Assembly: GCA_030849075.1 (NCBI GenBank)
Contig: JASAOO010003540.1
Location: 44,284-108,283 of the forward strand
Length of the DNA stretch: 64,000 nucleotides
Direction: 5' to 3'
DNA from: Zelonia costaricensis
Taxonomy: Eukaryota > Euglenozoa > Kinetoplastea > Trypanosomatida > Trypanosomatidae
Position numbers and translations under genes: made by a program. The notes beneath the pieces are model-generated. The model was not told the origin of the DNA, did no database searches, and saw only the letters and a program-made list of their open reading frames with translations. This document shows, in pieces, positions 35,607-54,692 of the stretch (the first letter of the stretch is position 1; each line of letters opens with the position of its first letter).

Positions 35607-37643
35607 CTACGATGCCTGACCAACCTTGTCGACAAACTGCCGACCAGCGAGGCAGCGCGGCAGCACCGAGACGAGGTGCACCTTTTCGGCGATGCCCTTG
35701 AGGGAGGTGAGGCCCACGTCACGGACGGCTACAAAGTGGTCAAGTCCACGGCTGTCCACCGCGGGCGGTGGGCTGAGAAGCTTGACGCTGCGGAACACGT
35801 ACGGGCACGGCTCATCGTGAAACTCCGGAATCGACTTCAGCTGTTGAAAGGTCTGGCGAGACATCAGAATCTGGCCGCCGCACGCGACGGACTCGACGCG
35901 GGCACACCGGTTGACGCTCGGGCCGTAGTAGTCGTACCGGCGGTGGATGCCGTCGTACGTCGCCGTGGCCTCGGTGCAGTGCTCGACACCGATGCGCACG
36001 CGCAGCGTCCGGTCGTCCCAGGCCTGCGGGTCGCCGCGGCCCTCCGTGTTGTCCACCATCGTGAACCCCGGCGCAATCGGGGCCAAGCGCATCAGCTCCA
36101 GCTGAATGGACAGCGCCAGCTTCACCGCAACCAGAACATCCTTCGTCGCGATGATGAAGGAGTCACCGACCGTCTTGACCTCGTACGCGCCGTGGTCGGC
36201 GATGAGGCGCCGGATCATGGCGTGGTGGTTCTTCACGGCCAGGCTCATCGTCTCCGAGTCCTTGCCCCACAGCTTCGTGCTTGCCTCGATATCCGTGAAG
36301 AGCATCGCGAAGGAGACGCTGTTGCTTGGCGCACGCAGGTTCTCAATGGTGTCGATGCCGCTCACCATACCAGCCGAGATGCCGTCAACCATGTGTTCGA
36401 AGAGCCACAAAAAGCGCGTTTCGACGGCGACGTTCCACTCGTCCTGGAGAAAGTGGCGGCAGGTGAAGAGGAACGGCTCGGTAAAGGAGCGGAGGTTCTC
36501 TGCCGTCACGTTGTACGCGGTGTGTCGCCCACCCAGCTCGCGCATATACTCGTCCGAGCGCTCCTTGTCGTGGATGTTGTTGATGAGGTCCACGTACGAC
36601 TGAAAGACACGATTGCTGGCGCGCAGGTCTTGCAGCGCCTCGAACTTAGACAAGTCGCCGTACATCTCGATCGCTTTGGCGTACATGACGCCGACAAATT
36701 GGTGCCTGGTGTCGCACTTGCTCTGCCGCTCCGTGATGAGCTTGAAGTCGGCTTGAATCTTCTTCAGCGTCTGAGCCTCGTGCAGCTTGCCGTAGCGCTC
36801 CCCTTCTGCGCTCTCGCTGCCGTGCTCGAGAAGGTCCAGTACCAGCTTCCAGAACGCCTGCCACTCCTCCTCTGCCGCCTCGAAGACGTCGCTGCCAACG
36901 AACTTCGGGAACACCTTAAAGAACGCGTTTCGCATCTCGGCAAACACAGCGCCGTTGACGCCATAGCCACGGTGCCGCGCGCCGGCCTTGGTGAACATGT
37001 CCACGGTGACCTGCGGCTTCTCGTAAAAGTGCACCGCCGTACCCACCATGCGGAGCAGCGACTTGGACTGCTCCTCGAGGTCGACGCCGTAGAAGTAGAC
37101 CCGCAGCCGCGGATTGCGTGTCAGGAGCTCGTCGTACAGCTGCTGGCCAAAGCGCTCCACCACACCCTCCTTCTCCAGGATATTCCACGTGCCCTCCACC
37201 GTGAACTGCGAGCGCTTCATCATCTGCTTGAGGTTCTCCAGCTCGCGGGTCAGGAGCACTAGGTCCTCCATCTCCGCCTTGGAGATGCTGACGTTCGTCT
37301 CGCGCTGCCGCAGTCGCAGCTGCTGCGCAGCGCTCACGAGCGTGTCATGAAACGCTTGCTGCCCGTTTGGCGCCACATCCTCGTCTGGCAGGCTCTCCAC
37401 CTCGCGTACGTCCTCCTGAAAATCGCTCGAATTGCGTCGAATGTCGAAGGAGTCCATCTCGCGCCGTCGCGAGCTTGCCGTGACGTCGTTCAGCGACGAG
37501 ACGTTCACTTCCTGCACCGGGCTGTCGGCCCGCTCCGTCAACGCGGTCATCTTTTCCGCCTCCGGTGGCGCTGACCGCGCCGCGCTCGCCTGCGCCGAAG
37601 CCCTGCGCTTTTGGCCGCGAGAACGCGAGGCACCTGCTCCCAT
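35607..37643 (-). CDS. Haem-globin-containing soluble adenylate cyclase (HemAC-like), two globin-like domains
   Basis: The 678-residue protein corresponds to the globin-coupled, oxygen-sensing soluble adenylate cyclase described in Leishmania. Residues 1-145 are polar and probably disordered, starting MGAGASRS, a possible N-myristoylation signal. Residues about 146-280 form a globin with GARHRGYGV, where His224 is the likely proximal haem ligand. Residues about 300-420 form a second globin-like unit, LGGRHTAYNV with His374 in the same position, followed by the G/H-helix pattern. The class III cyclase domain (about 443-655) has metal aspartates in LFTDIEAST and KTVGDSF, and RRYDYYGPSVNRCARVESVACGGQ as in trypanosomatid receptor cyclases. 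No transmembrane helix is present, unlike those receptors. It would make cAMP in response to O2 or another haem ligand. The start at 37643 follows a tract at 37741-37777 with AG at 37701. Confidence 0.93.
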   Translation of the reverse strand: MGAGASRSRGQKRRASAQASAARSAPPEAEKMTALTERADSPVQEVNVSSLNDVTASSRRREMDSFDIRRNSSDFQEDVREVESLPDEDVAPNGQQAFHDTLVSAAQQLRLRQRETNVSISKAEMEDLVLLTRELENLKQMMKRSQFTVEGTWNILEKEGVVERFGQQLYDELLTRNPRLRVYFYGVDLEEQSKSLLRMVGTAVHFYEKPQVTVDMFTKAGARHRGYGVNGAVFAEMRNAFFKVFPKFVGSDVFEAAEEEWQAFWKLVLDLLEHGSESAEGERYGKLHEAQTLKKIQADFKLITERQSKCDTRHQFVGVMYAKAIEMYGDLSKFEALQDLRASNRVFQSYVDLINNIHDKERSDEYMRELGGRHTAYNVTAENLRSFTEPFLFTCRHFLQDEWNVAVETRFLWLFEHMVDGISAGMVSGIDTIENLRAPSNSVSFAMLFTDIEASTKLWGKDSETMSLAVKNHHAMIRRLIADHGAYEVKTVGDSFIIATKDVLVAVKLALSIQLELMRLAPIAPGFTMVDNTEGRGDPQAWDDRTLRVRIGVEHCTEATATYDGIHRRYDYYGPSVNRCARVESVACGGQILMSRQTFQQLKSIPEFHDEPCPYVFRSVKLLSPPPAVDSRGLDHFVAVRDVGLTSLKGIAEKVHLVSVLPRCLAGRQFVDKVGQAS

Positions 37644-39059: not shown

Positions 39060-39866
39060 TCAGAGACAAACGGCACCGTTGAAGACCGTCACGGCCTCTC
39101 CCGTCATCCACACCGACCCCTCCCGGTTCCACGAGATGTCGAGGCAGCCTCCAGCCATCGAAACACGCACTTCACGAGAGGCCAGACCCAGAGTCGCTGC
39201 CGCCACCGCCGTCGCACACGCGCCAGTTCCGCACGCACGCGTGGCACCAGAACCGCGCTCCCACACGCGCACCCGTATCTCGGCGCTGCTGACCACCTGT
39301 GCGAACTCGACATTGGTGCGGTCACTAAAGACCGGGTGTCGCTCAATCAGCGGCCCGGCGACAGCAAGATCCACGGCGTTGACATCGTCAACGAAGACAA
39401 CAAAGTGGGGATTCCCCATGCTCACTTGCACGCCAAGAAACGAGAGGGCGCCGCACGCCAGCGACAGGTTCGCGTGCTGAACTACTGGCTGGCCCATGTT
39501 CACTGTGATACTTTCCACGGCGCCATCAGCGATGCGCAAGTGAAGCTCCCGGATGCCGGCGCGCGTTTCCAGTGTAATAGAGGTGCTGCTGGACAACTTC
39601 TTGTCGTGGAGGTACTTGCCGACGCACCGAGCCGCATTGCCGCACATCAGCGCCTCCGAACCGTCCGCGTTGAAAACACGCATGCTGAAGTCAGCCACTT
39701 TAGACTCGCCAATGAGCACAAGTCCATCCGCGCCGATGCCAGTGTGCGGTGCACTCCACCGCACCGCCGCGGCAGATGCGCAGTAGAGAGGGTACTTGGC
39801 CGAGTTCACGTAAATGTAATCGTTTTCGAGTCCGTGCATCTTTGTGAACTCGACGAGCTCCTGCAT
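39060..39866 (-). CDS. dapF: Diaminopimelate epimerase
   Basis: The 268-residue enzyme interconverts LL- and meso-diaminopimelate, a late step of bacterial-type lysine synthesis. Both catalytic cysteines of the cofactor-independent racemase are present: Cys75 in NADGSEALMCGNAARC and Cys212 in ERGSGATRACGTGACA. Other landmarks are FTKMHGLENDY at the N-terminus, TGIGADGL and SMGNPHFVVFVDD. Length and motifs match bacterial DapF (about 274). The start at 39866 aligns with bacterial proteins. The frame is open upstream to an ATG at 39989; the extra 41 residues (RLHLLTILRLVFKRATRHAGR) are basic and amphipathic, so a mitochondrial-targeted longer form cannot be excluded. The gene is bacterial in origin by family distribution, yet its base composition matches the neighbours, so the transfer would be old. 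No other lysine-pathway gene is in the window. Confidence 0.93.
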   Translation of the reverse strand: MQELVEFTKMHGLENDYIYVNSAKYPLYCASAAAVRWSAPHTGIGADGLVLIGESKVADFSMRVFNADGSEALMCGNAARCVGKYLHDKKLSSSTSITLETRAGIRELHLRIADGAVESITVNMGQPVVQHANLSLACGALSFLGVQVSMGNPHFVVFVDDVNAVDLAVAGPLIERHPVFSDRTNVEFAQVVSSAEIRVRVWERGSGATRACGTGACATAVAAATLGLASREVRVSMAGGCLDISWNREGSVWMTGEAVTVFNGAVCL

Positions 39867-41115: not shown

Positions 41116-44100
41116 CTACACGGTGGGCTTGGTGCCGTCGGCGCTGCGTGTCAGCTTCCAGAAGTCTGGTGCGAGGTTCAGACTGGTGAAGTGGCCGCGC
41201 AGGCGATTGAGGACGTCGAAGTGGCCCGTGTTGGGGTTGAGCGCCTTGTGCTCAAACTTGATGGCCTCCTGGAAGGATGCGAAGCTCAGAAATCCGATGT
41301 TGCTGCGCAGCTTCTGCTTGCGAAATCCACGGCGCAGGTAGGCGATGAGCCGGCGGTCGTACGCCGTGCGCGCCGTGTCGGCGTCAAAGGCCTTCTCCTC
41401 GCGGTACATGCGCCACAGCGACTGCATCAGTGTGGCACCACGCATCTTTTGCACGACCGAGAAAAAGTCCATCCACAGCTTCGACCCAACAGACGAGTCC
41501 GCCGGGAAGCCCAGCTCGAAGATGGCCAACGCCTGCACCAGCCGCAGCGGGGCGATGTAAGAGTCGCGACGCATTGTGGCCGTCGGCGGAGCGGCGTAGT
41601 ACGGATTCTGCGCCGTCCGGGGCGGCTCCGCGGGAGGGTAGACGGGCAGCTGCGAAAAGCGAAGATGCGCTGGCCCGCCGCAGCGGTAGCACTCCCACAT
41701 GTGCATGAACTCGCGCACCCGCGTCTGCCGCCGCTCGCTCACTGGCAGGTACTCGAGCAGCCGCCTCAGGGCGTACATGAAGCGGCGCTGCCGAGCCGGC
41801 CGGCAGATGTCGAGTTCCTCCAGCAGATGAGGCACGGCCCACGACGGAATCCCCTCCTGCGTGAACATGCGTGTGAATTTGCGGGCCTGAATGCGGCGGC
41901 GCGTCTGTGGACGCATATCGTCGTGGTTGCGCTCACCAAACCGCACCAGGCTGTGAAGCCCACCACACAGCGTGCGGTACAGCAGCAGGCTCTTTGCTGG
42001 CAGCGGCTGCAGGAAGGTCGTGCGCATCGGGACGGCGACGGCGCCGATCAGGATGCCCACGACACTGGCCACAATGGCGATGCCAAAGACGGCCAGCACA
42101 AACGCCAGACGCGACGTCGCGTACGTCTCGGCAACAACGAAGTAGTTGGTCGACGAGTTTTCCATCGCCGCCGCCGCCGCGGTGGCGTTGAAAGGCTGCC
42201 AGTAGTCGTAAAAGTCGGCAGGGATCGACGCCGTGAGGGTGAGCCGCAGAATCGCGTCGAAGGCGGCGCGCCAGGTGGTCGGTGTAAAACGAGTTCGCGT
42301 CTCGGACGCGTACACATCTGCCAACGCACTCGCCGACGCGACGTAGTACACGACGAGGCCACCGGCGCTGCAGAAAATTGGAAGCAGATTGTGCATCAGC
42401 GCGAGCAGAAACTCGCGGCTCAGCAAGCGTAGCAGGAAGACAAAGCGCACGGTGACGAAGTATGTGGGGTACGCGTCCGGTAAAATGAGACAAGCGCGGC
42501 GCTCGACCAGCAGCGTCGCGCAAAGTGCCGCGGCGGTGCAGTAGTACAGCAGCTGCACCACCTCGCACAAGAGAAAGACGCAGTCGCCGAAAAGCACGTA
42601 CCGGTGCTTCGCGTTGCCTTCGCAGCCTCGCCAGCTGACGCTGGACCGGGCGCAGCGGTGCACGGCGAAGGAGCACGACATCACCGCCTCCACCAAGCCG
42701 CACACCGTGAAGCCCACCTCGAAGCCGAAAAAGAAGTTGTGGTCATCAGATGTGGCGTTCGTGGAGGGACTGAAGATGCAGCCGAAAGCGAGACTCACGA
42801 TGAGGACGACATTGCCGGCGTAGCGGTACAGCCACTGGTACCAGCTGAAGGCTGCGGTCGTGATGGGGTCCTCGAGGAGCGGAATCATGTCCACGAGGAG
42901 CCGGTTCGTATCGCGTACGTTGGCACCCACCCCGAACAAGTACGACAAACACGTCGCGATGCACATGCCCGGCAGCACCCAGAAAAAGAAGATGGAGTAG
43001 AAGATGTACGCGTCATCGGCGAAGTACGCAGCAAAGAGGTCGGACGTCTGCGCGACATTGGGCCGCGAGGTGTGGCTGCGAGGGTACGCGGCCAGGTACT
43101 CCGCGTACGACACGTTCGCCCGAAGCGCCGCCACCTCGTCCGGGTTGCTCCAGTTGATGTTCATCCACGGCTTCGCAGTATACTGCACCATTACAATCTG
43201 CGCGCGCAGCAGCTCTGCAATGTACGCGGCGCCGCCAATCACGGCGACAGGGAACACGATCTTGATGACCGAGTCGATGTACAGCTTCACGACGCGCTTC
43301 GACTCGCGAAATGGGAACACCTGCAGCTGCCCGATCCGCAGCAGCGAGAGAAAGCGCACACAGTAGTAGTTGCGGTATGCGTGGCCGGGAAGCAGAACCA
43401 GCACCACGGCGCACAACAGCGCGCCGGCTGACACGACCGTGGTGACGGCGGTTGAGTCGTGCGGGATCACGATGACCGAGACGCCCGCGCTGAGCAGGTG
43501 GACGACGCACGAGGCGATGACCACCCCGCTGCCACGCTCCAGCGACGCGTCGGCGGCCCAGAGAAACGCTATCGACGCAAACGTCAACAGGACATTGAAG
43601 TAGTGCACCAGCACGTTGCGCACGACGATGCGGCTCAGGCGCTGCTGGACCAGGTTGCGGCGGAAGCGGTCCTGCTCGTTGTTCTCCTTGAACGAGGCGA
43701 ACTCGCCGCGACAGATGATCTCCGTCAGCACCGTGTACGTCTCCTCCGGCTCCGGCTCGTAGCCCTTCACAAAGGTCTTCTGCAGCGTGTACAAGTTCAT
43801 CCTGACGCTGCTGCTGCTGCGCGACATGTCCCAGACGGCGGTGACGCGGCGCCGGCGCATGTCGTTCAGCCACAGCTTCAGCCGCACCACCACGCCAACC
43901 GACACGCCGCTCTTTAGCCCCCAGTGCGTGTACCACGACGCGCCCTCTAGGTAGTTCTCCAGGTAATCGACGACGTCCTTGTGAAGGCTCTGCACCACCA
44001 GCCGCAAAAACCGCCCAATGAAGTTTGACAGCCGCAGCAGCGGGTGCAGCGTGATGGCGAGCACGAAGGGCGCGAAGAAAAAGTGCGTGAACAGCACGAG

Positions 44101-47100
44101 GAACGCCATGACGGGGGCCTCGCGAGAGGCATCCATATGGGTCGGCGTAAAGGCGGGCAGAACGAGTTCGCGCAGCGAGATGGCCAAGCAGTCGCCCCGG
44201 TTCGAGCACAGCGAGGGCCGCCCTGACAGCGCGGTTGCCGCTAAAAACTGAAGCGCCGCCACGTAGGCGATCATCCATATCGTCACGAACGACGCGACGA
44301 GGTAGAGCATGCCCCAGCGCACCATCCCAGGAATTCTGAACAGCAGCGACCACCCCTCCACCAGCCGCAGACTGCGAAAGGCCACGAATGGGATAGCAGG
44401 CGGCACGAAGCCGACGACGACGCAAAAGAGGCGCAGCAGCAGCCGCACGTAGTGCGAGAAGATGAACTCCAGCCGCAGAAAGTAGAGCGACACGACAAGC
44501 TCGACGGCAAAGACGGCGCTGAACGCCGCCTCCATGGCGAGCAGGTTCGGCTTGACAGACGCCATGACCAGCATGCCGATCAGCACCCAGTTCATCTCCT
44601 TCCGAAGCAGCCCGCCGGTCCACTGCCGCTCAATGAAACGCTCACCAGCACCCTTGCGCTCCGTCATGCCAAGCGCCGTCTCGACCACGTCAACGTCGTA
44701 CTTGCCGCGCGACTGCGGGTCCTCGTTACGGCAGTCCCACTTGCCCGCTTCCCGCGTCGCCGGCTTGGCCCCAGCCGTGCCGGTGCGCAGCGGCAGCGGC
44801 TGCTGCGGTCCCGCGAGAACGCCGTAGCCGCCCTGGTTGCCAAGGGTGTCCTGGACGCGGCGCACAAAGCGGTGAACGGTGATATCGGTGTTGTGGTCGT
44901 AGTGCGACGCATCGACTGCCTCCTTCGCCGCGCGCACGTCGTCCTCCCACATGACACCGTCAAGCTGCTGCCCTAGAGCCTCGATATTGGCCGCGCGGTG
45001 GGCGTCGAAGAGCTCCTCCTTACTCTCGTTGCGGAAGCGGTGCTTGTTGAGCTTCAACTTCGTCTCGTCGCTGATGTCGTAATGGTGCCGGATCGCGTTG
45101 TGCGTGCCGACCAGGGCCACAGACCAGCAGTACAGAAACATGACCATGCGAAAAACAAGCAGCTGCACCAGCGGGACCTGGAAACGCAACAGAGTGCGCC
45201 CGTCCGGCAGAACGTACGCGGACCGCTCAGAGCGCAGTGTTCGCGGCGCCGTTGCACCACCCACCTCGCCCGATCCGTCCCCCAAGAAGAGCTCAGTGAA
45301 CTGCGGGCTCGACGTTCTGAGCAGCCAGAGAAACACACGGCCCCAGTTGCCGTCGCTCGTCAGCAACAGCCCATTCACGGCCGTGCCGCGCACCGTGGCG
45401 CCGATGCCGCCCAGCGCGAAGGGGGCGAGCAGGAGCATGTACACTGCCGAGTATTCGATGCAGCGGCAGTACGTCCGCGTGCCGGAATGCCGGGGGGCAA
45501 ACAGGCGAACCAAAAACGGCAGCTTCAGCGTAAAGAGGGTGATCACGATGGCGCCACCGTACCGGCTCGCCGCCGCACACACCAGAGCCGTAACGACGAC
45601 GGCGGCGTCCCACAAGCGCCACCACCCCAGTGGCAGGCAGCACGTGACCACCGCCTGGACGCAGATGAACGCGATATCCACCTTGTTGTGCACCTGCGCC
45701 ACGCGGGTGCGCGGGGCGCAGCCCATGTAGATGAGCAGGAAAAGGCTAATGAGAAACTGCCCCAGTAAGACAAATCGCTCGAGCTCGACAGCGAGCCGCT
45801 GCAGCCGATGAAATCGAGAAAGGCGCGGCGCAGCAGGCGCCTTGCGTCGCCGCTGCAGAAAGGCGATTTCGCGAAAAATCGTACAGAAGTTCTCGCGCCA
45901 GACCAGCTGCGTTACCAGACGCGTCACCTCGCCAATCATCGCCCGGATCCGGCGCAGCATCAGGTGCTCCACAACCGCGTGACGCTCCCTGTCGAGTTGG
46001 TGCCGGCAGAGCTCGGCAACAATGACGTCTGCCGCGCTCCGGCGCTTCAGCGCGACGCGGTTGTGGTGCCGCCGCCAAGCCCGTTGCACCACCACGGTCA
46101 TCGCTCTGAGATGCCGGTAGCGCCGCACGGCTTTTCGCATTCGCGCCATGGCCTGCAGGTGCACCAGGAGCCGCTCGGGGAGGTCGCAGAGCGGCAGCTC
46201 GTACGGCGGCGGCGGCGCCAGCTCTGGTGGTGCCTCGCACGGGTCACTGTGCATGGTGCGTACGTCGCGCAACGCGGCCGCACGCCTCAGAGAGTAGGCT
46301 TCCGCCTTTGCCTCCACTCCCAAGTCGAGCATCGCCGCCGCCGCCTCTTCAGCCAGCACGAGCACGCCCAGCTGCGCGTCCCGCTCCAATACGAGCACAG
46401 CCACGGCCCAGCGCTCCCGCTCTGCCAGCCGGGCCGCCGCCGCCTCTTCCTTGGCCACCAGGCGCGCGAGTCGCCGCAGCGTTGCCGCGCGGTGGACGGT
46501 GCGCCGGCCCAGAAAGCCCCGCCCGACGCGCTGCACAGTGGCCGCGGACCGCTCACGGATGGCGCGTCGCTCGGCCAGGCGTTGGGCAGCGCGCTCCCTC
46601 TTCGCGACAAGAGCCGCGTGAGCCGCCGCCTCCTTCTCCTCCTGGTCCACACGCCGCTGTCGCTCCTTCTCTGCGAGCTTCCGCCGCTCGTGGTGGTGCT
46701 TCCGGTGCAGCGCACGTTCACCAGCCTCGCTCTCGCGCACAGCGTCGTAGGCGAGCTCCTCGGCTGCACACACGCTCGCGCGTGCCTCCTCCTCGCCGGA
46801 GACGAGCGCACCCACTTCGTCGTGAAAGATCAGCGCTGCAGAAACGGCGCCGCGCCGCAGCAGTGCCTCATGCAGCTCGCCGCAGCGCGGGTGCCAGTGC
46901 GAGGCCACGTCGTACACCGTCATCCGCTGTGCGTCTACAAGGTTCAGCTGCTCGACGACCTCGTCTCGCTCTGCGAGAGACTCCATCAAGATTGTCAGCT
47001 GCTCGGTGCCGAGGCGTTCATTCGCCACGAGGCAGTGCAGAAACGTTTCACCGCACGCGTTCACGCACGGCTCGGCGCCGTACTTGGCGACAAGAACAAG

Positions 47101-47445
47101 AATGGACACGATTGCCTCTGCGCACCGCGCAGCGACGTGGAGCGGTGTGTCGCCGTGCACGTTTTGGCTGAAGGTGAACCGAATCTGCGATTGCAGGACC
47201 GCCGTCAGGCAGTCTGGGGCAGCGATGGCAGCGGCGCGATGTAGAAGAGTGTTCTCCTCGCGATCGCACCACGTGCAGAGGCACCGGCGGTACCCGGCCA
47301 GTGAGTACCGCACCGTGCGTGCATCGCCGTGGTCAATTGCGTCCAGCAGGTCCGGCGTCGGCTGAAAAAGGGGCGCGCTAGAGGAGGACGTGATGCTGCA
47401 GAAGGCTAGGCTGCTGCCCAAGTGCGACGGGAGGTCTTTGTTCAT
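41116..47445 (-). CDS. Very large ankyrin/IQ protein with four ion-channel-like six-TM repeats
   Basis: The 2109-residue protein begins at ATG 47445. Residues about 30-150 contain ankyrin repeats (ENTLLHRAA, HGDTPLHVAA, GETFLHCLV). Residues about 200-460 are a highly charged helical region with two IQ-type calmodulin motifs (VQRVGRGFLGRR and VQRAWRRHHNR). Four membrane blocks follow at about 550-785, 945-1135, 1280-1505 and 1540-1800. Each holds about six hydrophobic helices in voltage-gated-channel order, with an S4-like segment carrying a few Arg, an S5, a re-entrant-looking loop and an S6. Pore-loop candidates are RTSSPQF (block I) and TASIPADF (block IV), which resemble the T-x-x-x-P filters of two-pore channels. 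Blocks II and III are more divergent. The C-terminal 300 residues are basic and helical. A four-repeat cation channel, perhaps calmodulin-regulated and flagellar, is the inference; conduction is unproven. The longer frame from 48060 translates a CA repeat and is not used. Confidence 0.8.
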   Translation of the reverse strand: MNKDLPSHLGSSLAFCSITSSSSAPLFQPTPDLLDAIDHGDARTVRYSLAGYRRCLCTWCDREENTLLHRAAAIAAPDCLTAVLQSQIRFTFSQNVHGDTPLHVAARCAEAIVSILVLVAKYGAEPCVNACGETFLHCLVANERLGTEQLTILMESLAERDEVVEQLNLVDAQRMTVYDVASHWHPRCGELHEALLRRGAVSAALIFHDEVGALVSGEEEARASVCAAEELAYDAVRESEAGERALHRKHHHERRKLAEKERQRRVDQEEKEAAAHAALVAKRERAAQRLAERRAIRERSAATVQRVGRGFLGRRTVHRAATLRRLARLVAKEEAAAARLAERERWAVAVLVLERDAQLGVLVLAEEAAAAMLDLGVEAKAEAYSLRRAAALRDVRTMHSDPCEAPPELAPPPPYELPLCDLPERLLVHLQAMARMRKAVRRYRHLRAMTVVVQRAWRRHHNRVALKRRSAADVIVAELCRHQLDRERHAVVEHLMLRRIRAMIGEVTRLVTQLVWRENFCTIFREIAFLQRRRKAPAAPRLSRFHRLQRLAVELERFVLLGQFLISLFLLIYMGCAPRTRVAQVHNKVDIAFICVQAVVTCCLPLGWWRLWDAAVVVTALVCAAASRYGGAIVITLFTLKLPFLVRLFAPRHSGTRTYCRCIEYSAVYMLLLAPFALGGIGATVRGTAVNGLLLTSDGNWGRVFLWLLRTSSPQFTELFLGDGSGEVGGATAPRTLRSERSAYVLPDGRTLLRFQVPLVQLLVFRMVMFLYCWSVALVGTHNAIRHHYDISDETKLKLNKHRFRNESKEELFDAHRAANIEALGQQLDGVMWEDDVRAAKEAVDASHYDHNTDITVHRFVRRVQDTLGNQGGYGVLAGPQQPLPLRTGTAGAKPATREAGKWDCRNEDPQSRGKYDVDVVETALGMTERKGAGERFIERQWTGGLLRKEMNWVLIGMLVMASVKPNLLAMEAAFSAVFAVELVVSLYFLRLEFIFSHYVRLLLRLFCVVVGFVPPAIPFVAFRSLRLVEGWSLLFRIPGMVRWGMLYLVASFVTIWMIAYVAALQFLAATALSGRPSLCSNRGDCLAISLRELVLPAFTPTHMDASREAPVMAFLVLFTHFFFAPFVLAITLHPLLRLSNFIGRFLRLVVQSLHKDVVDYLENYLEGASWYTHWGLKSGVSVGVVVRLKLWLNDMRRRRVTAVWDMSRSSSSVRMNLYTLQKTFVKGYEPEPEETYTVLTEIICRGEFASFKENNEQDRFRRNLVQQRLSRIVVRNVLVHYFNVLLTFASIAFLWAADASLERGSGVVIASCVVHLLSAGVSVIVIPHDSTAVTTVVSAGALLCAVVLVLLPGHAYRNYYCVRFLSLLRIGQLQVFPFRESKRVVKLYIDSVIKIVFPVAVIGGAAYIAELLRAQIVMVQYTAKPWMNINWSNPDEVAALRANVSYAEYLAAYPRSHTSRPNVAQTSDLFAAYFADDAYIFYSIFFFWVLPGMCIATCLSYLFGVGANVRDTNRLLVDMIPLLEDPITTAAFSWYQWLYRYAGNVVLIVSLAFGCIFSPSTNATSDDHNFFFGFEVGFTVCGLVEAVMSCSFAVHRCARSSVSWRGCEGNAKHRYVLFGDCVFLLCEVVQLLYYCTAAALCATLLVERRACLILPDAYPTYFVTVRFVFLLRLLSREFLLALMHNLLPIFCSAGGLVVYYVASASALADVYASETRTRFTPTTWRAAFDAILRLTLTASIPADFYDYWQPFNATAAAAAMENSSTNYFVVAETYATSRLAFVLAVFGIAIVASVVGILIGAVAVPMRTTFLQPLPAKSLLLYRTLCGGLHSLVRFGERNHDDMRPQTRRRIQARKFTRMFTQEGIPSWAVPHLLEELDICRPARQRRFMYALRRLLEYLPVSERRQTRVREFMHMWECYRCGGPAHLRFSQLPVYPPAEPPRTAQNPYYAAPPTATMRRDSYIAPLRLVQALAIFELGFPADSSVGSKLWMDFFSVVQKMRGATLMQSLWRMYREEKAFDADTARTAYDRRLIAYLRRGFRKQKLRSNIGFLSFASFQEAIKFEHKALNPNTGHFDVLNRLRGHFTSLNLAPDFWKLTRSADGTKPTV

Positions 47446-53153: not shown

Positions 53154-54692
53154 CTAATGCCCGACGGCGTGGCGACTCTGATCGTTGACAAACTTGTTGC
53201 CCTCAACGATGTTGTAGCCAGCAGCCGACGCGCCGCCGCGGGCCTGCGCCGCCTGCACGACATTTGGAATCGCCGCCTGCGTGTGGAGGAGCGTGTTGCT
53301 CTGGCGCATCACCTGGTCGCTGATGGAGACGTCGTCCAGGTACTGCTTCAGAATCCCCTGCAGCCCGCGGTTCTCCTCCTCGAGAAGGTAGCGCTCCTGC
53401 GTCAGCGCGGCGTTGTCAAGCACGACCTTGTTGTGCTTCAGCCAGAAACGGTCCAGCAGCTGCCACTGCTCATTCAACGCCGGCGCCGCGCCGCTCCCGA
53501 CCTGCGCGTCCTCCGGTGCGTCACCGGAGCCGTCGACGCCGACGCGCCGCTTCGTCTCCGCCTCGACCGCAGCCGCGGAGATGTTTGCCTCATGCAACAG
53601 TACCTGCTCCCGCTCCGTCTCCATCGGCTTGCAGAGCTGCACGAGCCGCAGGAGGCGCTCGGCACGCTTCGCCGTGGCCTGCAGCGCTTCCTCCGTCGCG
53701 TTTGCCTCCTTCACAAGATCGATGAGCGCCGTCGACTGCAGCTGCCGCCACCGCTGCATCTTTTCCTTGAGGCGCTTCAGGTGCGCCAGCGTCGCGTCGC
53801 GCTCGGCCTGGATGGCTGCGTTGCGGGCCTCCCACTCCTTCGCGTTTCGCGCAATGTTGGTCCGCCACGAGGCCACGCTGACCTGCAGCTTTTCGATCTT
53901 CCGGAGCTGTGCGGCGATGCGCTCGGTCGTGTCTTGGTCCTCCTTGCACTTCTCCGTGTACTCCTTCATGTTCGCCTGGGCGGTGGACATGAACCCCTTG
54001 TACCGCGCATCGAGCTCGCTGCGGAGGGCGTCCTCAACCTTGTTCAAGTCCGTCTCCATCTGCCGCTTCTCCTCGTCCATCTTCTCGGCGGCCGTCTCGT
54101 GCCCCTCAGAAGTCTCCTCCTGCAGTTGCTTCTCCAGCAGCTCCGCCTCGCTCGCCATGTTCTCGAGAATCAGCCGCAGGTCTTCCATCTCGATCTTGTG
54201 CTTCATCTCGAGCTCGGCCCGCTCGAACTCAAAGTCCTGCTGCATTTCAACGACGTTGGTGTCCAGCTCTGCCTCTAGGTCGCGCGTCCGCGCTGCGTGC
54301 AGCTCCAGCAGCGAGCTCACCACATCCATGTGGGAGCGAAACGCATGGCGGCACTGCTCCTCCGCTACATTCAGCTCCTCCAGGAGCGTCGCCGACGAGG
54401 CGTCCTTCCGGTCGAGCGTCGACTCGAAAGTTCGTCGCAGCACCTCGATCTCGGCGGTAAGCTCGCGCTGCTTGCACTCGCGTAGAAACCGCACCCACCG
54501 TGCGTCGATGGTGCCTGACACCGTCGCGGCCATCTCCTTCTCCTCCGCCACGATCTCGCGCAGGCGACTCTGCAGGAGCATGCGCTGCCGACACCGTTTC
54601 TCCGATTCCTCGGCCCGCATGCGCTCCAGTTCGACACCGCTGAGGATCTTCTTGCGGCCGCCCTTCTTGGAGCCCTTCTTTGCTGGCGGCAT
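53154..54692 (-). CDS. DRC2: Dynein regulatory complex subunit 2 (CCDC65-like)
   Basis: The 512-residue coiled-coil protein resembles DRC2/CCDC65, a structural subunit of the nexin-dynein regulatory complex of motile axonemes. It starts with a lysine-rich tail (MPPAKKGSKKGGRKK), typical of DRC2, followed by nearly continuous heptad-rich helix from about residue 20 to 360. The most diagnostic part is near the C-terminus: LDRFWLKHNKVVLDNAALTQE, then LEEENRGLQGILKQYLDDVSISDQVM, matching the DRC2 pattern LDRFW...NKV...LRQYLDGISV. Human CCDC65 is 484 residues, so the length fits. It would help tie doublet microtubules and regulate dynein in flagellar beating. The longer frame starting at 54893 adds 67 residues that look like UTR translation; MPPAKKG is the family-consistent start. 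Confidence 0.88.
   Translation of the reverse strand: MPPAKKGSKKGGRKKILSGVELERMRAEESEKRCRQRMLLQSRLREIVAEEKEMAATVSGTIDARWVRFLRECKQRELTAEIEVLRRTFESTLDRKDASSATLLEELNVAEEQCRHAFRSHMDVVSSLLELHAARTRDLEAELDTNVVEMQQDFEFERAELEMKHKIEMEDLRLILENMASEAELLEKQLQEETSEGHETAAEKMDEEKRQMETDLNKVEDALRSELDARYKGFMSTAQANMKEYTEKCKEDQDTTERIAAQLRKIEKLQVSVASWRTNIARNAKEWEARNAAIQAERDATLAHLKRLKEKMQRWRQLQSTALIDLVKEANATEEALQATAKRAERLLRLVQLCKPMETEREQVLLHEANISAAAVEAETKRRVGVDGSGDAPEDAQVGSGAAPALNEQWQLLDRFWLKHNKVVLDNAALTQERYLLEEENRGLQGILKQYLDDVSISDQVMRQSNTLLHTQAAIPNVVQAAQARGGASAAGYNIVEGNKFVNDQSRHAVGH

What the first reader, a model, noticed from the sequence alone, without database searches (positions are those of the whole stretch)
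41116..47445. Single polypeptide combining ankyrin repeats, IQ motifs and four channel-like six-TM repeats
Seen directly: N-terminal ankyrin units, two IQ-type motifs, then four consecutive hydrophobic blocks with S1-S6-like order in one uninterrupted 2109-codon frame. Known: four-repeat channels (Cav, Nav, NALCN) normally lack N-terminal ankyrins, whereas ankyrin-bearing channels (TRP) have one repeat. The S4 segments carry few positive charges and two of the four pore loops resemble two-pore-channel T-x-x-x-P filters. Inference: a divergent four-repeat cation channel class, calmodulin-regulated, possibly flagellar.
Basis: partly seen in the sequence, partly recalled or inferred. Interest (0 to 1): 0.82.

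Follow-up and report, generated by a model that had tools for sequence, protein, structure and literature searches.

The report
Ankyrin-bearing four-repeat trypanosomatid ion channel
A trypanosomatid gene encodes one large protein with ankyrin repeats and calmodulin-type IQ motifs ahead of four membrane repeats that are predicted to fold like a single calcium/sodium/leak-type channel; in one relative's gene model the same protein runs on into a relative of the cyclase encoded two genes downstream, so the two likely work together.

Summary
In detail: a 2109-codon frame (41116-47445, minus strand) encodes ankyrin repeats, IQ-type motifs and four six-segment membrane blocks. Sequence does not show channel kinship: no Ion_trans (PF00520) hit here or in 17 homologues. 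Structure prediction does: template-free AlphaFold models match Cav, Nav, NALCN and two-pore channels best, though repeats I-II are modelled poorly. S4s keep 2, 2, 2 and 3 conserved basic residues, and the EEEE/EEKE/DEKA ring is missing. It is likely a weakly voltage-sensing, poorly selective cation channel; conduction, calmodulin binding and location are untested. Named homologues come from Leishmania, Porcisia, Leptomonas, Strigomonas, Trypanosoma theileri and T. melophagium; none named T. brucei or T. cruzi came back. Papers read list two Cav-type genes per Leishmania species; this would be a third. Unexpected: homologue P0014 (3390 aa) continues into a relative of the globin-cyclase (HemAC-type) gene two genes downstream here. 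If real, it is a channel-cyclase fusion, but its cyclase motif and presumed heme histidine are changed, so that half may be inactive. New variant of a known kind.

The parts
41116..47445 (-). Open reading frame, 2109 aa, four-repeat channel-like protein
47062..47346 (-). Ankyrin repeats (residues 34-128)
   Evidence: PF12796 29 bits, over cut-off; family profile also finds ankyrin structures
46504..46536 (-). IQ-type motif 1, VQRVGRGFLGR (residues 304-314)
   Evidence: pattern scan
46057..46089 (-). IQ-type motif 2, VQRAWRRHHNR (residues 453-463)
   Evidence: pattern scan
45091..45789 (-). Repeat I, S1-S6 (about residues 553-785); S4 K641, R647
   Evidence: hydropathy; from S3 on in the low-confidence AlphaFold model; S1-S2 not modelled; charges
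44611..45090 (-). I-II linker (about residues 786-945), highly conserved
   Evidence: measured over 783-949: 56-81% identity in 14 of 16 homologues, 44% and 27% in the other two
44020..44610 (-). Repeat II (about residues 946-1142); S4 R1024, R1027
   Evidence: (low confidence)
42916..43614 (-). Repeat III (about residues 1278-1510); S4 R1364, R1370; acidic pore turn 1477-1478
   Evidence: AlphaFold model, pLDDT mostly 70-90
42010..42867 (-). Repeat IV (about residues 1527-1812); S4 R1667, R1673, R1677; pore T1738-x-x-x-P1742; invariant R1734 in pore helix
41161..42009 (-). C-terminal domain after IV-S6 (residues 1813-2095); its first part, up to about residue 1980-2000, aligns with NALCN
   Evidence: weak profile match to the post-S6 domain of the genome's Cav-like ORF
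41392..41442 (-). C-terminal IQ-like helix (residues 2002-2018)
   Evidence: PF00612 best stretch, whole-protein score just under cut-off
35607..37643 (-). HemAC-like globin + adenylate/guanylate cyclase gene; separate here, its closest relative is joined to the channel in homologue P0014
   Evidence: PF00042 1.2e-14, PF00211 4.8e-24; 50% over 225 aa and 28% over 304 aa to P0014
39060..39866 (-). Diaminopimelate-epimerase-family ORF between channel and HemAC-like gene
   Evidence: PF01678 1.8e-61

Best explanation
The ORF encodes a 2109-residue protein with N-terminal ankyrin repeats and IQ-type motifs followed by four six-segment membrane repeats that are predicted to fold as one Cav/Nav/NALCN-like pseudotetramer and would likely form a weakly voltage-sensing, poorly selective cation channel. 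Shown: the frame, the ankyrin and IQ-type motifs, family conservation, the low S4 charge and the absence of an acidic filter ring. Predicted: the channel fold (well for repeats III-IV, poorly for I-II) and a NALCN-like start of the C-terminal domain. Inferred: the ankyrin repeats anchor the channel or bind a partner, calmodulin on the IQ motifs gives calcium feedback, and the pore carries mixed cations as in leak channels. Inferred with less support: the channel works beside the HemAC-type globin-cyclase, whose relative is joined to it in one polypeptide in homologue P0014.
Confidence: 0.6

Rival explanations
1. Channel fold without conduction: a voltage-sensor or scaffold protein in the membrane that has kept the four-repeat architecture but lost ion selectivity, acting through its ankyrin and C-terminal domains.
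For: No acidic ring; repeat III goes from pore helix to S6 with almost no filter turn in the model; an invariant Arg (18 of 18) sits in pore helix IV; linker I-II and the C-terminal domain are better conserved than repeats I, III and IV.
Against: Pore-loop residues T711, Q715, D1478, T1738 and P1742 are each kept in 16 or 17 of the 16-18 rows, which a dead pore need not keep.
Confidence: 0.22
2. An ordinary Cav-type calcium channel paralogue that has drifted beyond Pfam detection.
For: Cav chains are the best Foldseek hits; two Ion_trans four-repeat ORFs exist in the same genome.
Against: No EEEE-like filter, 2-3 basic S4 residues per repeat, N-terminal ankyrins. No recent paralogue: the core found only itself in the genome.
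Confidence: 0.12
3. An unrelated polytopic helical protein (transporter or receptor); the channel matches are an artefact of a hydrophobic helical model.
For: No sequence-level match; helical bundles score as high; low TM-scores.
Against: Two separate models and two aligners put Cav/Nav/NALCN/TPC chains first (not).
Confidence: 0.06
4. Side question, not exclusive of the others: the P0014 protein is a false merge of two neighbouring genes, and channel and HemAC have no functional tie.
For: P0014 comes from one EukProt model with no contig listed and starts with an N-terminal extension that no other row of the alignment has; the genes are separate in this window, 3.5 kb apart with one ORF between them; cyclase Asp and globin His are changed in P0014.
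Against: Homology to the cyclase gene begins 15 residues before the first methionine that could start it (2269), the join is an uninterrupted proline-rich stretch, and of eight cyclase loci found in the genome only the neighbour matches both parts.
Confidence: 0.35

Closest known systems
NALCN / fungal Cch1 (four-repeat leak channels)
   Same: Four repeats in one chain, low-charge S4s (stated for Cch1 and NALCN in a passage of PMC6259924); III-IV-C-terminal model aligns over 497 residues at 5.2 A
   Different: No EEKE/EKEE filter, added N-terminal ankyrins and IQ motifs, no sequence similarity detected
Trypanosomatid Cav (TbCaV/FS179, LmjF.34.0480; named in passages of PMC12172032)
   Same: Predicted four-repeat fold; the post-S6 domain of the own genome's C385 ORF, presumably the TbCaV orthologue (not tested), matches weakly at the same place
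   Different: The C385 ORF is found by PF00520 in all four repeats; this ORF is not
Two-pore channels (TPC1-3)
   Different: TPCs have two repeats and dimerise (recalled); here four repeats lie in one chain
TRP channels with ankyrins (TRPA, TRPV, TRPC, TRPN)
   Same: N-terminal ankyrins before a channel domain; TRPA1 ankyrins among the PDB rows
   Different: TRPs have one repeat per chain and tetramerise (recalled)
Channel/adenylyl cyclase fusions of Paramecium, Tetrahymena and Plasmodium
   Same: Like homologue P0014, channel and cyclase part in one chain (Weber 2004, seen only as a citation in a passage of PMC12414865)
   Different: The Paramecium cyclase carries an intrinsic K+ conductance (same call); P0014 has a four-repeat channel plus a globin-like stretch, and its cyclase may be inactive

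Membership tests
[quoted passage not shown]
   By prediction only. Low confidence for repeats I-II; S1-S2 of repeat I seen only as hydropathy
[quoted passage not shown]
   none in homologues
[quoted passage not shown]
   other filters exist in this superfamily in protists (PMC5824947 passages)
[quoted passage not shown]
   2, 2, 2 and 3 conserved basics, spaced 6, 3, 6, and 6 then 4; basic-poor S4s are known in the superfamily
[quoted passage not shown]
   Start of the domain aligns with NALCN up to about residue 1978-2002 and weakly with the own Cav-like ORF; the IQ helix itself lies outside that and is 0.3 bits under the Pfam cut-off
Two-pore channels | Two repeats per chain | tested here: not met
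   four blocks
TRP channels | One 6-TM repeat per chain | tested here: not met
   four blocks
Voltage-gated channel by function | Voltage-dependent ion conduction | not testable with these tools
   needs electrophysiology
Channel-adenylyl cyclase fusion | Channel and cyclase in one chain | tested here: not met
   Separate genes in this window; seen only in the gene model of homologue P0014, whose cyclase motif is changed

The most novel reading that the evidence does not exclude
This is a separate class of four-repeat channel, the electrical half of a HemAC-type signalling module: ankyrin-anchored, calmodulin-tuned, with a non-acidic filter, and covalently joined to a globin-cyclase polypeptide in one lineage, so that oxygen/cAMP, calcium and membrane voltage are read by one complex.
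Probability: 0.18. Interest if true: 0.88.

Novelty: new variant of a known kind. Interest (0 to 1): 0.63.

Why it matters
The papers read here name two putative Cav-type genes per Leishmania species (PMC3194816; LmxM.17.1440 and LmxM.33.0480 in PMC9799330). This family would be a third, easily missed because it lies below Pfam's reach (although UniRef labels one Leishmania cluster as having an ion transport domain). It is conserved in Leishmania, so it is a candidate for unexplained cation currents there. How HemAC, the oxygen-dependent cyclase of Leishmania, connects to the membrane is, as far as I know, open; a natural joining with a channel gives a testable lead. The filter and the low-charge S4s would also widen what is known of four-repeat pores.

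Tried and rejected
Per-repeat profile-profile comparison: no significant link among the repeats or to eight Ion_trans domains; reversed controls gave scores of the same order except for repeat IV. PDB sequence searches with the core profile (0 rows) and the C-terminal profile (one chance row). The 14-sequence profile search (60 of 357 rows shown) was swamped by ankyrins. NCBIfam: nothing for this protein. Search of the own genome for paralogues: only itself. Tying the gene to Leishmania chromosome 28 from memory of the HemAC gene number was not confirmed (no paper with LmjF.28.0090; LmjF.28.0110 is a proteasome subunit) and was dropped. Flagellar location: dropped, no evidence. An oxygen-sensing reading of P0014 was weakened. 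Literature: all ten searches used; those naming ankyrins together with four-domain or trypanosome channels and the one on globin-cyclase-channel fusions (0 papers) listed no paper that I recognised as describing this protein. Only listings, passages and two sections of one paper were read. The Leishmania transporter screen PMC11696137 (passages) counts 312 proteins and names a voltage-gated ion channel family; its supplements were not open to me, so it may list this gene. The library is open-access only.

VIA-align rows: families not listed were not taken as excluded.
Full report
WHAT IS THERE. The frame runs on the minus strand from ATG 47445 to the stop at 41116 and codes for 2109 aa; the plus-strand frame of the same stretch holds stops. 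Codon-position GC (0.65/0.45/0.84) is that of a coding frame. The window lies in a 28.67 Mb assembly of 755 contigs. The homologues named by their sources are all trypanosomatids, and in a tree of 17 core sequences (P0015 left out) the window protein groups beside Leishmania plus Porcisia but outside them, so the host is probably a relative of Leishmania outside that group; it is not named.

FAMILY. Three searches found 17 homologues: 13 of 7985 scored candidates, 15 of 937 (three of them new) and 16 of 1756 (the query P0017 included; one new). Named sources are Leishmania (mexicana, donovani, utingensis, sp. Namibia, martiniquensis, tarentolae), Porcisia, Leptomonas (two), Strigomonas, Trypanosoma melophagium and T. 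theileri; P0007, P0008, P0012, P0014 and P0018 carry no organism. No protein named T. brucei or T. cruzi came back; candidates are chosen by shared words, so this is suggestive, not proof. In the own genome the core finds only itself. [quoted passage not shown]

N-TERMINUS. Ankyrin repeats at 34-128 pass the Pfam cut-off. Two IQ-pattern motifs at 304 and 453 exceed the shuffled expectation only modestly (3.2% of 1000 shuffles reach two). The first is kept in 12 of the 15 rows that have the N-terminal part, the window included; P0010 lacks it, and the T. theileri and T. melophagium rows have a pattern match elsewhere, at 415 and 411. A third IQ-like helix, 2002-2018, follows the last repeat.

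PORE AND SENSOR. Conserved S4 basics are K641/R647, R1024/R1027, R1364/R1370 and R1667/R1673/R1677, each in 16-18 of 17-18 rows. Filter candidates: I T-x-x-P-Q, II T-P-x-H, III E/D-D, IV T-x-x-x-P. There is no acidic ring. Acidic residues kept nearby are 1093 in pore helix II (16 of 17), 1477 and 1478 in repeat III (14 and 16 of 18) and 1746 behind the repeat IV loop (13 of 17). An Arg in pore helix IV (R1734) is invariant in 18 of 18. This suggests weak voltage sensing and poor selectivity; it shows neither.

C-TERMINAL DOMAIN. The 280 residues after IV-S6 are among the best conserved of the protein. Against the C385 ORF the best local match is its post-S6 domain (E 4.8e-4 and probability 32% against the 200-residue piece; 0.0047 and 7.5% against the 2290-residue core; reversed controls 0.49 and 0.36); against the C472 ORF there is none (0.32).

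THE CYCLASE. Homologue P0014 (3390 aa) has ankyrins, the channel, then a PF00211 cyclase. Its last 1200 residues match the window ORF 35607-37643, a globin plus cyclase protein, at 50% over 225 aa and 28% over 304 aa. Of the eight cyclase loci that the search found in the own genome the seven others reach 32-35% on the cyclase part only. In the window this gene follows the channel gene on the same strand, with a diaminopimelate-epimerase-family ORF between them (gaps of 1249 and 1416 bases). The globin-cyclase pair is the architecture of Leishmania HemAC, an oxygen-dependent cyclase whose loss raises cell death in hypoxia (passages of PMC4534343). In P0014 the homology to the cyclase gene starts 15 residues before the first usable methionine, and a proline-rich stretch joins the halves, which favours a true fusion; without DNA this stays unproved. 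Against an active oxygen-sensing cyclase there: Pfam sees no globin in P0014, the His of the globin stretch is Phe, and the Asp of the FTDIE motif, present in all eight own cyclase loci, is Asn; that these are the heme ligand and a catalytic metal ligand is recalled. The joined half may thus be a binding or regulatory remnant. The branch is deep (sister to Trypanosoma plus P0018, 65% support). Known precedents of channel-cyclase proteins are in Paramecium, Tetrahymena and Plasmodium.

WHAT IS IN PRINT. Prole and Taylor list two Cav homologues in L. major (two sections read); a 2022 review lists LmxM.17.1440 and LmxM.33.0480 (passages); a survey of 277 four-domain channels names kinetoplastids once and ankyrins never in its main text (passages). 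I could not check whether any listed accession is this gene; that they are the orthologues of the two Ion_trans ORFs is inferred.

VERDICT. Observation confirmed; four-repeat channel fold likely (about 0.85 by my judgement), conducting cation channel likely (about 0.6), functional tie to HemAC possible (about 0.2-0.3; lowered, as were the odds of the novel case and the interest).

Noticed in passing
window 35607-37643 (-): Globin plus adenylate/guanylate cyclase gene (HemAC type). Its N-terminus reads MGAGAS, which resembles an N-myristoylation signal (recalled), so it may be membrane-bound rather than soluble.
   Followed up: partly
homologue P0014, residues 2254-3315: Cyclase motif FTDIE reads CTNVE and the globin-stretch His reads Phe, so the joined half may be inactive.
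   Followed up: partly
window 39060-39866 (-): Diaminopimelate epimerase family protein (PF01678 1.8e-61), an enzyme family best known from bacteria and plants (recalled), in a trypanosomatid.
   Followed up: no
window 53154-54692 (-): NYD-SP28 'sperm tail' family protein (1.4e-18), likely a dynein regulatory complex subunit of the flagellum (recalled).
   Followed up: no
L011 1521-9998 and L012 2785-6873: Two large ORFs of the own genome (C330, C252) with Ion_trans matches and a GGGVGD pore motif typical of IP3/ryanodine receptors (motif recalled), whereas one per species was reported by PMC3194816.
   Followed up: no
homologue P0015 (Leishmania tarentolae): The deposited protein is only 1021 aa and matches from window residue 1163 on; its first 78 residues lie outside the match, so this gene may be broken or shortened there.
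   Followed up: no
homologue P0018: Most divergent member (30% overall), 1647 aa, starts just before repeat I and lacks the ankyrin/IQ part; only a sub-threshold C-terminal IQ hit.
   Followed up: no
homologue P0003 (Leishmania donovani): Lacks the stretch with the second IQ-type motif present in its close relative P0002.
   Followed up: no
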